From assembly GCA_028285305.1 (NCBI GenBank), contig JANQPV010000053.1, positions 1 to 64,000 on the forward strand: a DNA stretch of 64,000 nt. The letters are read 5' to 3'. Under the pieces are notes generated by a model. The model was not told the DNA's origin. It did not search any database and saw only the letters and a list, made by a program, of their open reading frames with translations. The translations under genes were made by a program, and so were the position numbers. Positions 23,729 to 62,449 of this stretch are shown here, one piece after another (position 1 is the first letter of the stretch; the number at the start of each line of letters is the position of its first letter). Origin of the DNA: Alphaproteobacteria bacterium. Lineage in GTDB: Bacteria > Pseudomonadota > Alphaproteobacteria > SMXP01.

Positions 23729-23743
23729 TTAACGCAAGCTTAA
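23729..23743 (-). promoter_or_regulatory. CtrA-type box (TTAA-N7-TTAA)
   Basis: TTAACGCAAGCTTAA matches the alphaproteobacterial CtrA consensus exactly. It lies 51-65 bp before the ATG of the YbjN-like gene, a plausible promoter position. A further TTAACC lies at 23703-23708. Binding is inferred from the motif only. Confidence 0.55.
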
Positions 23744-57009: not shown

Positions 57010-57906
57010 CTAGTCGTCGCTACCTTCGTCCGCGCCGCTCGGTACGCTCGGCACATAGCCTTCGATTTCCCCAGGGCCGAACACGGTCGGATAATCGCTG
57101 CTTGCAGGCGCGGCGTAGTCGCCGCTCGCACCGTCTGAAGCACCTTCAGACCCGAAGGAGTCGAGCGAGGAATAGGCAACGCCGTGGGGGCTCATGAACG
57201 CATGATGAGAATTGGGACCGCTATAGACCTCATCACGATGGCGGAAGCCAAAACGTGTCACTTCGAGTTCACCTTCATCCTCAATGAGCACCAAAGCCTT
57301 GTATGTTCTTTGCACGATCGGCTTGCCCTCGGCATTGTAGAGAGGCTTTCCCGTCCTTTTGTTGAGCTTAAGGGTCCGGCCTTTGCCCATGCCTTCGATC
57401 ATCGTGAACAATTGTCGGGCGTTTGCCAATCGCAACCGCGTGCAGCCGGCCGAAGCGCGCTGACCCAGCTTGAAATAGTTGTATTCTTCCGTGCCATGAA
57501 TGGCATATCCCCCATTGTAATCCCAATACATGGCGTACAACATGGGGCCATCCCAGGCGCGGGAATAGGCGTCTTGGTTCAGGAAATCGATTTTATAGAA
57601 CCCGGTCGGCGTCTTGCGCGTGCTCAGGCGGCCCTTAATGTCCCGCTCCGGCGTTTCCGCGCCTGTCGATGCATGCCAGCGGCCCACAAACTCGATCTCA
57701 CCGGTGCTGGCGTGGTAACGATGAATACGCAGGCGTTGTGCATTCAAAGACGAGCCCGCGCTGGACTTATCGATCTGGATGATGATCTCATACCCGTGAT
57801 AGGGATGTTCCAGGAGTTCTTTGACACTCGGCCCGCTGGATGCGAACGCCGCGCCTCCCGTGAGCCATGCAACACTCAAGATGATAGCGGAAAGAACAGA
57901 TCTCAT
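57010..57906 (-). CDS. L,D-transpeptidase (YkuD) domain protein, exported, copy 1
   Basis: The 298-aa protein has a signal peptide (ILSVAWLTGGAAFASS). Its catalytic region carries AIHGTEEYNYFKLG followed by SAGCTRLRLANA. The His and Cys match the YkuD catalytic residues HGT...SxGCxR. L,D-transpeptidases make 3-3 crosslinks or attach proteins to peptidoglycan. A glycine- and serine-rich tail ends at SGADEGSDD. The close paralog at 59118 shares HPY.G...II.IDK, SLNAQRLR and ISTGAET-like blocks. Confidence 0.9.
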   Translation of the reverse strand: MRSVLSAIILSVAWLTGGAAFASSGPSVKELLEHPYHGYEIIIQIDKSSAGSSLNAQRLRIHRYHASTGEIEFVGRWHASTGAETPERDIKGRLSTRKTPTGFYKIDFLNQDAYSRAWDGPMLYAMYWDYNGGYAIHGTEEYNYFKLGQRASAGCTRLRLANARQLFTMIEGMGKGRTLKLNKRTGKPLYNAEGKPIVQRTYKALVLIEDEGELEVTRFGFRHRDEVYSGPNSHHAFMSPHGVAYSSLDSFGSEGASDGASGDYAAPASSDYPTVFGPGEIEGYVPSVPSGADEGSDD

Positions 57907-58038
57907 TTTCTTTTTTGGATATCCCTGATCTTAATGCCCCGACACGGCGCCCCACCCGATCCGTTTAAGCGAACCGCGCATTTTAAGTTAAGCCTGATAT
58001 TTGGCGATAAAGTGAATAAATGCAAATGTAATTGTGTC

Positions 58039-58053
58039 TTAATCAACCCTTAG
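58039..58053. promoter_or_regulatory. Near-match to a CtrA box upstream of copy 1 of the L,D-transpeptidase
   Basis: TTAATCAACCCTTAG matches TTAA-N7-TTAA at seven of eight fixed positions (TTAG for the second TTAA). It lies about 133 bp upstream of the copy 1 start. It is much weaker than the perfect box before copy 2 and could be chance. Confidence 0.25.
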
Positions 58054-58190
58054 TGATGGGATTCCGCTACATAGATCTGCATCGCTACAATGTTTGGCAA
58101 AGATGCAATACGTGTACCCAAGCTGCCTGTCGAAACCCAAACCTTGATCGCGCTTCCCGTCTTTCCCACCTGAGAAACCAACACCTCCAT
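58050..58190 (-). CDS. Possible 46-aa small protein
   Basis: The 380-bp gap between copy 1 of the L,D-transpeptidase and gph holds one small minus-strand reading frame (start ATG 58190). It begins MEVLVSQVGKTGSAIKVWVS and ends VAMQIYVAESHH. Its composition looks protein-like, but there is no clear ribosome site and no known family. Chance is possible. The rest of the gap shows nothing. Confidence 0.3.
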   Translation of the reverse strand: MEVLVSQVGKTGSAIKVWVSTGSLGTRIASLPNIVAMQIYVAESHH

Positions 58191-58286
58191 ATTGAGCGCT
58201 TTTGATTAAAGTTCGATGTATTGCCAAGGCGGGTTTGCCGGTGCACAAACCGACGTTAACCTTAATTCAAGTCCGAGCCGAGCCGC

Positions 58287-58964
58287 ATGGAAGACGAATA
58301 TTGCGTTATCTTTGATTTGGACGGAACGCTGGTGGACACGGCACCCGACCTCCACCGGGCCCTGACTTTCGTATTGGAACGCGAGAACATTGCCGTACCA
58401 GACTTGGAAACTGTGCGGCCCTTCGTCGGCCATGGCGCCCGCCATCTTATTGCGCAATCTTTTAAGCACGAGCAAATAGAGATCTCCGATGCCGCGTTGG
58501 ATGGACTGACGGAAGACTTCGTCGATCATTACGCGCGCAATATTGCTGTGGACAGCATGCTCTTCCCAGGTCTACGGGGCTGCTTGGAGCAGCTCAGCCG
58601 GATGGGAACAAGACTAGGTGTGTGCACGAACAAACGTACACATCTGGCTCAACTTCTTTTGGAACAAATGGAGTTGGATTCGTTCTTTTCGGTTGTGCTG
58701 GGCGGAGACGCCTTGGATGTGCGCAAACCGCATCCGTTCCATCTCCTCGAAACGATTCGCCGCGTCAAGAGCTCCCCTCACCAGGCTGTGTTGATTGGAG
58801 ACAGCACGACCGACGCAGAGGCTGCGCGCAATGCTAATGTGCCATTCATCGCAGTCTCATTCGGTTATTGCGATGTAGCGCTCTCTGCCTTGGGGGCGAC
58901 GGCGATCATCGACCAATTTGGGGACCTCATTCCCGCCTTAGAACAGATCTTCGGGGGAAAATAG
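58287..58964 (+). CDS. gph: HAD-family phosphoglycolate phosphatase
   Basis: The 225-aa HAD enzyme has the nucleophile motif VIFDLDGTLVDTAPDLH (Asp pair), the Thr/Asn motif in LGVCTNKRTHL, and GDSTTDAEAARNANVP, as in Gph. It removes 2-phosphoglycolate from DNA repair or oxygenase action. The exact substrate is family-based. It stands between the two L,D-transpeptidase genes. Confidence 0.9.
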   Translation: MEDEYCVIFDLDGTLVDTAPDLHRALTFVLERENIAVPDLETVRPFVGHGARHLIAQSFKHEQIEISDAALDGLTEDFVDHYARNIAVDSMLFPGLRGCLEQLSRMGTRLGVCTNKRTHLAQLLLEQMELDSFFSVVLGGDALDVRKPHPFHLLETIRRVKSSPHQAVLIGDSTTDAEAARNANVPFIAVSFGYCDVALSALGATAIIDQFGDLIPALEQIFGGK

Positions 58965-59043
58965 CGTGTGCGCTTCCCCTGATGCACTGCCTTTTGAGTG
59001 CTGCGAATTGGCCACAGTTGTTGCAGATGGCCTCTTTTTAGCC

Positions 59044-59058
59044 TTAACCAAAGGTTAA
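59044..59058 (+). promoter_or_regulatory. CtrA box upstream of L,D-transpeptidase copy 2
   Basis: TTAACCAAAGGTTAA is an exact TTAA-N7-TTAA CtrA site and is itself a palindrome (TTAACC-AAA-GGTTAA). It ends 59 bp before the start codon, where an activator or repressor could act. Regulation by CtrA is inferred from the motif. Confidence 0.6.
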
Positions 59059-59117
59059 TTTCGATTGATCGGGTTAGCGAATAGGGTAAGAGTCCGTTCC
59101 ATCGAGGTCGGCAATCC

Positions 59118-59894
59118 ATGATGTATATGAAGAGAAAAATCGCGATATGGGCGCTCGCCTTTCTTTCACTTGGCGTGACCCAAGTGATCGCAGGCCCCAG
59201 CAAGAGCGAACTGAGGGCTCTGAAAGAACATCCTTATTTCGGTCATAACATCATTATTATGATTGATAAGGCGAAACAGGGCACGTCTCTCAACGCGCAG
59301 CGGCTTCGCGTGTACTCTTATGATCCCGAAGAACAAGAACTGACGTTTGTCGCCCGCTGGCGAATCTCGACCGGAGCAGAAACCCCGAAGGCAAACGCTC
59401 ACGGGAACGTCCGGCCACGAACCACCTTAAAGGGATATTACCGACCGCAAGTCCTCGATCCCGACGCCTATTCTCATTCCTGGGACGGTCCGATGATTTA
59501 TTCTCTGTTCTATGACCATCCCAGATACGCCATCCACGGCACAGAAAGTTACAACTACTTCAAACTCGGCCGCCGCGCGTCGGGCGGATGCACCCGGTTG
59601 ACAGCAATGAACGCGCGCAAGCTGTTTTCTATGGTAGACGAACTCGGTAAGGGCTGGACCCTACAGTTCAACAGACACACCGGGCGACCCCTACGGACTG
59701 AATCAGGCGGCTATGTGACCGCTTGGGGCTATCGGGCCCTCGTCGTTATCGAAGAGGATGGCACACAAGAACCCACGCATACGGGCTTTATGAATAGGGA
59801 TGTTGTATACGCGACAGCCGATTCTGGCGCCAGTCATGTAACGGTCCCGCCGCAATGGACACCGCCCATTACTGTCTCTCAGCTTGAGAACTAG
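59118..59894 (+). CDS. L,D-transpeptidase (YkuD) domain protein, exported, copy 2
   Basis: The 258-aa protein has a signal peptide (IAIWALAFLSLGVTQVIAG) and the catalytic residues in YAIHGTESYNYFKLG and SGGCTRLTAMNA. It is clearly paralogous to the protein at 57010, on the opposite strand with gph between, and lacks that protein's C-terminal Gly/Ser tail. It probably works on peptidoglycan in the periplasm. The CtrA box suggests cell-cycle timing. The start could be ATG 59118 or an ATG 3 or 9 bp later. Confidence 0.9.
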   Translation: MMYMKRKIAIWALAFLSLGVTQVIAGPSKSELRALKEHPYFGHNIIIMIDKAKQGTSLNAQRLRVYSYDPEEQELTFVARWRISTGAETPKANAHGNVRPRTTLKGYYRPQVLDPDAYSHSWDGPMIYSLFYDHPRYAIHGTESYNYFKLGRRASGGCTRLTAMNARKLFSMVDELGKGWTLQFNRHTGRPLRTESGGYVTAWGYRALVVIEEDGTQEPTHTGFMNRDVVYATADSGASHVTVPPQWTPPITVSQLEN

Positions 59895-60070: not shown

Positions 60071-62449
60071 CTAGCTCCCTTGCAACGCTTTTGGGCCCGG
60101 ATCCGGGGTGCCTAAGGTCGCTCTCGCGTGCGCGCTCTCTTGGCCCTGATGCTTCTGCGCCTTGATGGGCACACCCAAATAACCGCTCACTTTCTCCAAC
60201 ATTACATTTAGATCGATGGGTTTCGCGATATAGTCATCCAAACCGGCGGCTAAGTACTTTTCGCGATCTCCTTCCATTGCGTCTGCGGTCATTGCAATTA
60301 TGTTCACGCTGTCGCCCAGCTCTGAGATATTCCGTATGCGCTTGGTTGCTTCGACACCATTCATGTTGGGCATTTGGATATCCATTAGAATAAGATCGTA
60401 AGGGAACGCATTCGCCGCAGCCACTGCTTCGATCCCATCGTGGGCGACATCAATCAGTACATCAATATTCGACAGTGCGACCAAAATAAGCTGCTGGTTG
60501 ACGACATTGTCTTCCACCAGAAGAACTCTTTTCTTTCTGGTTTTTTCGGCTTCAAGCGTCCCGTCTCCCGGCGCGTGCAGACTTTGCGACGTGAAAAGCT
60601 GTTCGTCGGCCTCCGAAGTCGTTTGCGCTTCGGACCTGCTTAAGGCAGTTACGAGCGCTTCTTTTATGACTTGCTCGCGGATTGGTTTCGCCGCGCGCGC
60701 CACGAATCCCCACTCCTTCGCTTGACCGTCGCCAACTAGATCCGTGGACGACGACAATATCAGGGGCAAGTTGCGGTCTGAAGTCCGCAGCCTATTTGCC
60801 AACTCAACACCGTCCACGTCCGGCATCATATGATCAATAATGACCGCGTCAAAGGGGCTACGTAACTTGTTCGCTTGATCAATGGAGATGAGGGCCGTAT
60901 TGGCATCAGGAACCGCGATCACGTCGATCCCCAGCCCTTCCAACATTAATGTGAAAACCCGCCGGTTCAACTCCACATCGTCGACGACCAAAACGCGCCG
61001 GCCTTGGAGTTCAACGACTACGTTGGATGAGGTTTCGTCTTCGCTGGCCGCGCTTGTGATTTTGAATGGGATTGAAAGCCAAAACGTGCTTCCTTCCTGT
61101 GGCTGGCTCTCCACTCCGATTTCGCCGCCCATGGCCGCCGCTAACTCCTTGCAAATTGCCAACCCAAGACCGGTTCCGCCGTACTTCCTCGTCGTCGTGC
61201 CGTCCCCTTGTGTGAAGCGGTCAAACAAATGCGCCAGCTTGTCCTCGGGTATCCCGATTCCTGTGTCCACAACTTTAAAACGCACACGAACGGTATCTTT
61301 TATGGGCGACGTTTCGTGATCTTCCGGCGTCACGATAACCGCAATCGAACCAGTTTCGGTAAACTTTACGGCGTTGCCCACCAAATTCATGAGCATTTGG
61401 CGCATCCGGCCGCTGTCCCCTATCAGATGTGGAGGAACGGCAGCGTCCACATGCATCGCAAGATCCAAGTGTTGAGCTTGTGCGCGGGGACGTTGGAGCG
61501 AAAGGACACTTTCAACAACGGAACGCACCGAAAACTTTTCAGACTCCAATTCTAACGCCCCGGCTTCAATCTTCGAGATATCGAGAATGTCATTTATGAT
61601 TGTGAGTAGGTTCTCACCACTCTCTCTGATGGTGCTGACATACTCCTTTTGCGCATTATCGAGTCTGGTGTCGCTCAGCAAACTGGCAAATCCCATAATC
61701 CCATTCATTGGTGTACGGATTTCATGGCTCATCGTGGCCAGGAATGCGGACTTTGCCTGAGATGCCGTTTCGGCACGATCCTTCGCTTCCTCATAGTTTT
61801 TGGCCAATTCTTCATAAGACAGTTGCAAATGTAGTCCGTCCCTGAACCTTCTGGACGCCCGCCAACCAAACATGATGATCAAAGCCGTGAATGTTGGTGA
61901 CGAAAGTGCCAAGATGTTGGGTAAAGTTCCCGTCGCCGAAAGGTATTTGAGCTCGGCCATAAGGGAAATCGCGATCAGTGTGGCACACAGAACCGGAAAG
62001 CAAGAGGAAACGCAGAAAAATACGATTACGAGTGCCCCTAGAGTGATGGTTACCAAGAGCGCTTGCACGACCAAATTGTCGTCCAACCAGAACACCCACA
62101 CGGCGCTGCCCCAAATCAACCCCACAACGGTCCAAATGACCGATTGGATCGCCAACCAATGCGACGGGGCCAAGCGATCGGGACGCTGCCGATACATTGC
62201 ACGAACAAGAAGAGCAGTCAGTGCATGAATGATGATGGCGGATAACCAGATTGCCGTGGGCAGCGTACGCTGAGTATCAATCTCGGGGAATAGTCCGTTG
62301 AAGGCGAGAGAATAGAAAATACCGAAGGGAACGCTGGAGAGGTAAAATAGCGAGAATGCATCTCCGAAAACAGATTCGGTGAGCTGGTGATTAATCCGCT
62401 CTGCCCATTTGTCTTGCGGCAATTCGATCGCCTTTTCGTTCCTTGTCAT
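60071..62449 (-). CDS. Membrane hybrid sensor histidine kinase with two receiver domains
   Basis: The 792-aa kinase has a multi-helix N-terminal sensor (about 30-200), a coiled segment and a HisKA domain with His242 in [12 protein letters not shown]. The HATPase region has NAVKF (N), DTGIGIP (G1) and [11 protein letters not shown] (G2). Two receivers follow: residues about 485-605 with Asp539 in [12 protein letters not shown], and 640-760 with Asp690 in [12 protein letters not shown]; a Lys follows in each. There is no Hpt domain, so phosphate must pass to a separate Hpt protein. The signal is unknown, and the sensor is not a named domain. Confidence 0.94.

What the first reader, a model, noticed from the sequence alone, without database searches (positions are those of the whole stretch)
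59044..59058. Perfect palindromic CtrA box in front of an L,D-transpeptidase-domain gene
TTAA-N7-TTAA is seen directly, about 60 bp upstream of the start. CtrA is the cell-cycle master regulator in alphaproteobacteria. Linking an L,D-transpeptidase-type wall enzyme to CtrA would tie peptidoglycan remodelling to the cell cycle. The link is inferred.
Basis: partly seen in the sequence, partly recalled or inferred. Interest (0 to 1): 0.55.

Follow-up and report, generated by a model that had tools for sequence, protein, structure and literature searches.

The report
Probable CtrA site before wall-crosslinking gene
A short DNA sequence that the bacterial cell-cycle regulator CtrA probably recognises sits in the promoter of a cell-wall crosslinking enzyme gene; it looks genuine in this one genome, is not seen before distant relatives of the gene, and adds a new case to a link already proposed elsewhere.

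Summary
The box is real: TTAACCAAAGGTTAA at 59044-59058, 59 bp before an L,D-transpeptidase gene (LDT2, 59118-59894 +), in a 153-bp intergenic gap. The genome encodes CtrA (NCBIfam NF045991, 427.7 bits, cut-off 350) and a ChpT-type phosphotransferase. TTAA-N7-TTAA occurs 43 times genome-wide, against 17.7 per spacing for the ten other spacings from N3 to N13. Of the 43 N7 sites 30 lie just upstream of a predicted start, against 14 of 36 sampled other-spacing sites. This site ranks 3rd of 43 in a leave-one-out matrix. CtrA binding is therefore likely. Conservation did not help: no same-genus genome turned up, four same-family genomes lack the gene, and 0 of 39 distant homologs has the box near its start. 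A divergent paralog (LDT1, 57010-57906 -) has two overlapping degenerate N7 boxes. CtrA motifs before LDT genes were already proposed for Agrobacterium (PMC11527210). Verdict: a credible new CtrA target of a known kind; the timing of wall remodelling remains inferred.

The parts
59044..59058 (.). TTAA-N7-TTAA box, perfect palindrome TTAACC-AAA-GGTTAA; candidate CtrA site
   Evidence: rank 3 of 43 genome N7 sites in a leave-one-out matrix; local shuffle frequency 0.0016
59118..59894 (+). LDT2: secreted-type YkuD-domain L,D-transpeptidase, 258 aa; His140 and Cys158 invariant among 19 aligned sequences
   Evidence: model mean pLDDT 77.3 matches YkuD-fold L,D-transpeptidases, best 4a1i E 3.1e-6; signal peptide read by eye
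57010..57906 (-). LDT1: paralog of LDT2, 298 aa, 50% identity over 228 alignment columns
58028..58053 (.). Upstream of LDT1: two overlapping one-mismatch N7 boxes (CTAA-N7-TTAA-N7-TTAC on the - strand) at -147 and -136 from the LDT1 start
   Evidence: three one-mismatch N7 sites in the 380-bp LDT1-gph gap, mean 0.35 in shuffles, frequency 0.008
58287..58964 (+). gph-like HAD phosphatase between the two LDT genes
   Evidence: best NCBIfam phosphoglycolate phosphatase models, 181.4 and 175 bits, below their cut-offs of 225 and 180
59010..59039 (+). Possible terminator of gph: GGCCA / TGGCC stem with a 13-base loop, then TCTTTTT; would give LDT2 its own promoter
   Evidence: read; the stretch 58995-59045 folds at -15.8 kcal/mol, z -1.53, not exceptional; not listed by the terminator scan, which allows loops of 3-8 only
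59082..59087 (+). Speculative -10 (TAGGGT); would put the box centre near -43
   Evidence: read by eye; the sigma-70 scan found no promoter here

Best explanation
The box is a genuine CtrA operator of the LDT2 promoter. Phosphorylated CtrA would bind TTAA-N7-TTAA directly upstream of the LDT2 core promoter and activate it, so that a periplasmic L,D-transpeptidase is made in the part of the cell cycle when CtrA is active. Shown here: the box, its promoter position, the presence of ctrA and a chpT-like gene, the genome-wide excess and promoter bias of the N7 spacing, and the enzyme family. Inferred: binding, activation rather than repression, timing, and 3-3 crosslinking or protein tethering as the enzyme's reaction.
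For: ctrA at NF045991 427.7 bits against a cut-off of 350, receiver domain matching the PDB entry named CtrA (4qpj, 1e-65); HPTransfase family hit, whose only control genome of 14 to ring is Caulobacter. N7 43 against a mean of 17.7 for other spacings; N7 excess also significant in 6 of 7 other genomes, in the seventh (G004) only 1.1-fold. In G005 (same class) an exact N7 box lies 42 bp upstream of the ctrA match, as expected of CtrA autoregulation. 30 of 43 N7 sites promoter-proximal against 14 of 36 sampled other-spacing sites (Fisher 0.007). TTAAC-N5-GTTAA form, which this site has: 10 of 43 N7 against 1 of 36 (Fisher 0.0096). Rank 3 of 43. Other N7 sites precede a FliO-like gene with a flgB-like gene on the other side, a TolQ/MotA/ExbB gene, a comM-like gene and a DUF2336 gene (the flgB-like name is by eye, Pfam gave no hit). 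ChIP-seq in Hyphomonas gives TTAA-N7-TTAAC (PMC7200025, passages).
Against: No homolog outside this genome has the box near its start: 0 of 39 with at most one mismatch. No ortholog was found in the four same-family genomes to test. The C after the second TTAA, part of the Hyphomonas consensus, is absent on both strands (TTAAT / TTAAG). From promoter-proximal counts, roughly a quarter of such sites (6.9 expected of 30) would be chance (arithmetic). The reversed-pattern control AATT-N7-AATT is more frequent than N7 (72 against 43), so only the spacing comparison speaks for enrichment. No exact N7 site precedes ctrA itself in this genome, only one-mismatch sites. The two other YkuD genes of the genome have none. 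No sigma-70 match was found at this promoter.
Confidence: 0.72

Rival explanations
1. Chance match: an AT-rich intergenic stretch that happens to spell TTAA-N7-TTAA, with no CtrA binding.
For: About 17.7 sites per spacing occur genome-wide at other spacings, and 14 of 36 sampled are promoter-proximal anyway. The box is not shared by homologs.
Against: N7 is 2.4-fold over other spacings and promoter-biased; the TTAAC-N5-GTTAA form is 10 of 43 against 1 of 36; rank 3 of 43.
Confidence: 0.15
2. Operator of another dimeric regulator that reads the inverted repeat TTAACC-N3-GGTTAA. Named candidates: LdtR (MarR family, activates ldtP in Liberibacter and Sinorhizobium) and CenR (OmpR family, activates a putative L,D-transpeptidase gene in Rhodobacter).
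For: The box is a perfect 6-3-6 palindrome, whereas CtrA needs only TTAA-N7-TTAA. LdtR and CenR do regulate LDT genes (PMC3999280 and PMC9275681, passages).
Against: LdtR's footprinted 18-mer matches at most 10 of 18 bases in the gph-LDT2 gap and 11 of 18 in the LDT1-gph gap, both strands, the median of shuffles. CenR's TGA-N8-TGA is absent from both gaps on either strand. 26 perfect 6-3-6 repeats in the window show the palindrome alone is not informative. Regulators without a known site were not tested.
Confidence: 0.1
3. RNA hairpin or weak terminator of the upstream gph transcript.
For: 59038-59058 folds as an 8-pair hairpin (UUAGCCUU / AAGGUUAA), -6.5 kcal/mol, z -2.98.
Against: AU-rich and weak, no long T run after it, and a better stem followed by TCTTTTT lies just upstream at 59010-59039.
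Confidence: 0.03

Closest known systems
CtrA-motif-bearing LDT genes of Agrobacterium tumefaciens (PMC11527210, passages read)
   Same: In silico CtrA motifs upstream of YkuD L,D-transpeptidase genes, 9 named; the suggestion that their expression matters when cell-cycle regulation is perturbed; also unproven by binding.
   Different: That paper's legend to S11 Fig calls the sites atypical (N not 7, or atypical TTAACCAT); here the spacing is the canonical N7 and the box is a perfect palindrome. LDT2 belongs to a pair not found in this organism's family relatives.
CtrA regulon of Hyphomonas neptunium by ChIP-seq (PMC7200025, passages)
   Same: Consensus TTAA-N7-TTAAC; mostly intergenic sites (211 of 222).
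   Different: The trailing C is missing here; no ChIP data for this organism.
CtrA regulon of Brucella abortus (review PMC10787603, passages)
   Same: CtrA directly binds promoters of peptidoglycan-metabolism and envelope genes.
   Different: No LDT target was named in the passages read.
LdtR-ldtP of Liberibacter and Sinorhizobium (PMC3999280, passages)
   Same: A dedicated regulator upstream of an alphaproteobacterial L,D-transpeptidase gene.
   Different: MarR-type regulator with a different binding sequence, no better than chance here.

Membership tests
CtrA binding site | TTAA-N7-TTAA core | tested here: met
   exact match at 59044-59058
CtrA binding site | TTAA-N7-TTAAC extension seen in Hyphomonas ChIP-seq | tested here: not met
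   T follows on +, G on -; consensus from PMC7200025
CtrA binding site | organism encodes CtrA and its phosphorelay | tested here: met
   ctrA, HPTransfase family, which I recall as ChpT; cckA not searched
CtrA binding site | promoter position | tested here: met
   intergenic, 59 bp before the ATG; no mapped transcription start
CtrA binding site | motif class over-represented in the genome | tested here: met
   N7 43 against mean 17.7 at other spacings
CtrA binding site | conserved upstream of orthologs | tested here: inconclusive
   no orthologs found in the four same-family genomes; 0 of 39 distant homologs
CtrA binding site | bound and regulated by CtrA in vivo | not testable with these tools
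   needs ChIP, footprint or expression data
YkuD L,D-transpeptidase | YkuD domain over the curated cut-off | tested here: met
   37.8 bits, cut-off 23.4
YkuD L,D-transpeptidase | catalytic His and Cys | tested here: met
   H140 and C158 invariant in 19 aligned sequences; their catalytic role is recalled and agrees with the His/Cys pair named in PMC10864386 passages
YkuD L,D-transpeptidase | fold | tested here: met
   model pLDDT 77.3; the matches with E up to 0.001 that are listed are YkuD or L,D-transpeptidase entries; TM-scores are modest, 0.38 by query and 0.57 by target for the first hit
YkuD L,D-transpeptidase | crosslinking activity | not testable with these tools
   needs muropeptide analysis

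The most novel reading that the evidence does not exclude
Both members of an LDT pair absent from the family relatives searched, set around gph next to glmU-glmS, are CtrA targets, so that this alphaproteobacterium stages L,D-crosslinking, and perhaps wall-precursor supply, by the CtrA cycle with dedicated enzymes rather than by stress-type regulators (LdtR, CenR) known for other LDT genes.
Probability: 0.25. Interest if true: 0.45.

Novelty: new member of a known kind. Interest (0 to 1): 0.27.

Why it matters
If true, CtrA control of L,D-transpeptidases would extend beyond the Agrobacterium motif prediction to another alphaproteobacterial lineage, with a canonical site that can be tested directly. 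It would make LD crosslinking a cell-cycle-timed rather than only a stress-induced activity in a second lineage.

Tried and rejected
Conservation through close relatives: the relatives search (60 genomes) and the class search (385 genomes) listed no same-genus genome and no match in the four same-family genomes. The glmU loci of these show gph beside glmU in three (G001, G002, G003) without an LDT in the loci held, and in two of those (L150, L152) a different 194-aa ORF in the gap; the fourth (G004) was split over contigs. I also fetched longer stretches (L155-L159) and did not analyse them, so the far side of gph in relatives was not looked at beyond the whole-genome searches.

Homolog upstream scan: my first passes read eight loci (L043, L045, L046, L047, L048, L051, L052, L053) on the wrong strand, because loci from the genome search keep contig orientation; one search corrects the N7 result. 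One search's k-mer table is therefore partly contaminated and I rely (27 of the 28 oriented loci, L067 left out) for the half-site observation. The same slip made the minus-strand ORFs meaningless; only L008 (ctrA, plus strand) is used from it. A one-mismatch N7 site in the G008 homolog (L037, position 946) lies inside its reading frame, downstream of the possible starts, and is not counted as upstream.

A shared GTTAACC half-site in homolog promoters looked at first like conservation of the box. In those promoters it is part of TTAACC-N17/18-GGGACA, which the window lacks, so I do not count it as conservation. Class-wide the exact pattern GTTAAC-N18-GGGACA occurs in 17 of 385 genomes, no more than its reversed control by eye; that exact pattern misses variants such as the N17 form in G008.

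LdtR and CenR sites: CenR repeat absent, LdtR 18-mer at chance level. Terminator reading: weak. LDTGo-type (1,3-crosslinking) membership: considered from PMC10864386 passages; LDT2 has no proline-rich N-terminal belt by eye; not pursued.

Controls' limits: the other-spacing set is 36 sites taken from the first places listed, not a random sample of all 177; gene starts there come from a simple codon-usage finder I wrote.

Full report
What is there. It lies in a 153-bp gap between the end of a gph-like HAD phosphatase gene (58287-58964 +) and the ATG (59118) of a 258-aa YkuD-domain protein, here LDT2. A second YkuD gene, LDT1 (57010-57906 -), 50% identical over 228 alignment columns, stands on the other side of gph, followed by glmU and glmS on the same strand (names recalled from the translations; they align at 56-64% and 60-79% to loci of five relatives). 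LDT2 is a plausible secreted enzyme: signal-like N-terminus by eye, His140 and Cys158 invariant in 19 aligned sequences, and a predicted model (pLDDT 77.3) whose best solved matches are L,D-transpeptidases (best 4a1i, E 3.1e-6).

Is CtrA there? Yes. One gene of the genome passes the CtrA equivalog model (427.7 bits, cut-off 350), and its receiver matches the PDB entry named CtrA, 4qpj (1e-65). The HPTransfase family, which I recall as the ChpT family and whose only control genome of 14 to ring is Caulobacter, has one hit. CckA was not searched.

Is the box more than chance? Genome-wide TTAA-N7-TTAA occurs 43 times; spacings N3-N13 together give 220, so the ten other spacings average 17.7 (Poisson 2.6e-7). 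The same N7 excess is significant in 6 of 7 other genomes; in the seventh, G004, it is only 1.1-fold. In G005 one such box lies 42 bp upstream of the ctrA match. The reversed-pattern control AATT-N7-AATT is more frequent than N7 itself (72 against 43), so the spacing comparison, not the raw count, carries the argument. With a simple gene finder, 37 of 43 N7 sites are intergenic and 30 of 43 lie within 250 bp upstream of a start; for 36 sampled sites of other spacing these are 23 and 14. The TTAAC-N5-GTTAA form occurs in 10 of 43 N7 sites and 1 of 36 others. The box under study has that form and ranks 3rd of 43 in a leave-one-out matrix. Ten genes next to N7 sites, out of 39 listed and chosen by me, were scanned in Pfam: FliO, MotA/TolQ/ExbB, DUF2336, Mg-chelatase (comM-like), outer-membrane efflux, MlaE and a porin were named; three had no hit, among them the flgB-like gene named by eye. 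Flagellar and envelope genes are what CtrA regulons contain in other alphaproteobacteria (recalled, and for envelope genes PMC10787603 passages). Locally, an exact N7 box appears in 0.16% of shuffles of the gap.

Does conservation support it? Not so far. No same-genus genome was listed. Four same-family genomes lack the gene at the thresholds used (completeness 77-92%); three of them keep gph next to glmU, without an LDT between. Of 39 homologs (17 of them aligned, 27-36% identical to LDT2) from other genomes, most titled or classed as Alphaproteobacteria but some only as Proteobacteria or Oligoflexia, none has an N7 box with at most one mismatch near the start; starts are uncertain and one upstream region (L067) was short. 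So the box is either new with this gene pair or too labile to follow over this distance.

The paralog. The LDT1-gph gap holds three one-mismatch N7 sites (shuffle mean 0.35, frequency 0.008). Two of them overlap at 11-bp pitch upstream of LDT1. This is suggestive of a second, weaker CtrA site but does not stand alone. The genome's other two YkuD genes show none.

How it probably works. CtrA~P would bind the box and activate LDT2. A -10 of TAGGGT at 59082-59087 would put the box centre near -43, an activator position; this is by eye, and the sigma-70 scan found nothing there. A stem with TCTTTTT at 59010-59039 may end the gph transcript and leave LDT2 with its own promoter. Repression by CtrA is not excluded.

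Against what is known. CtrA motifs upstream of nine Agrobacterium LDT genes were proposed in silico in 2024 (PMC11527210, passages). ChIP-seq in Hyphomonas gives TTAA-N7-TTAAC (PMC7200025, passages) and in Brucella shows CtrA at peptidoglycan-metabolism genes (review PMC10787603, passages). In Caulobacter two LDTs (LdtD, LdtX) make the 3-3 crosslinks; the passages read there do not link them to CtrA (PMC6373972). LDT genes elsewhere answer to LdtR (PMC3999280, passages) and CenR (PMC9275681, passages); CenR's repeat is absent here and LdtR's site is no better than shuffles. In the searches made I saw no experimental CtrA-LDT link, but only listings and the passages named were read. The finding is thus a good new example of a proposed kind, not a new kind.

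Noticed in passing
L065-L092 upstream of the LDT homologs (e.g. L080 about -78, L085 about -77, L078 about -71 from the first start): Promoters of distant LDT homologs share a composite element TTAAC(C)-N17/18-GGGACA, in several followed by eye by a -10-like TAnnnT: the regular expression hits 13 of 27 loci, and GTTAAC lies upstream of 14 of 23 LDT genes against 1 of 70 other genes in the same loci. The exact form is not enriched class-wide and is absent from the window's genome. The homologs are related, so counts are not independent.
   Followed up: partly
window 23729-23743: Second exact N7 box (TTAACGCAAGCTTAA), 32 bp upstream of a 173-aa secreted-type protein on the - strand; rank 26 of 43.
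   Followed up: no
window 57010-59894: The LDT pair is not found in four same-family genomes; in two of them the glmU-gph gap holds a different 194-aa ORF instead.
   Followed up: partly
window 60071-62449 (-): Hybrid histidine kinase with two receiver-domain matches next to LDT2.
   Followed up: no
window 59090-59094 and 58060-58064: One GANTC (CcrM-type, recalled) site in each of the two intergenic regions, the first near the guessed LDT2 start of transcription; 148 in the window, so not unusual.
   Followed up: no
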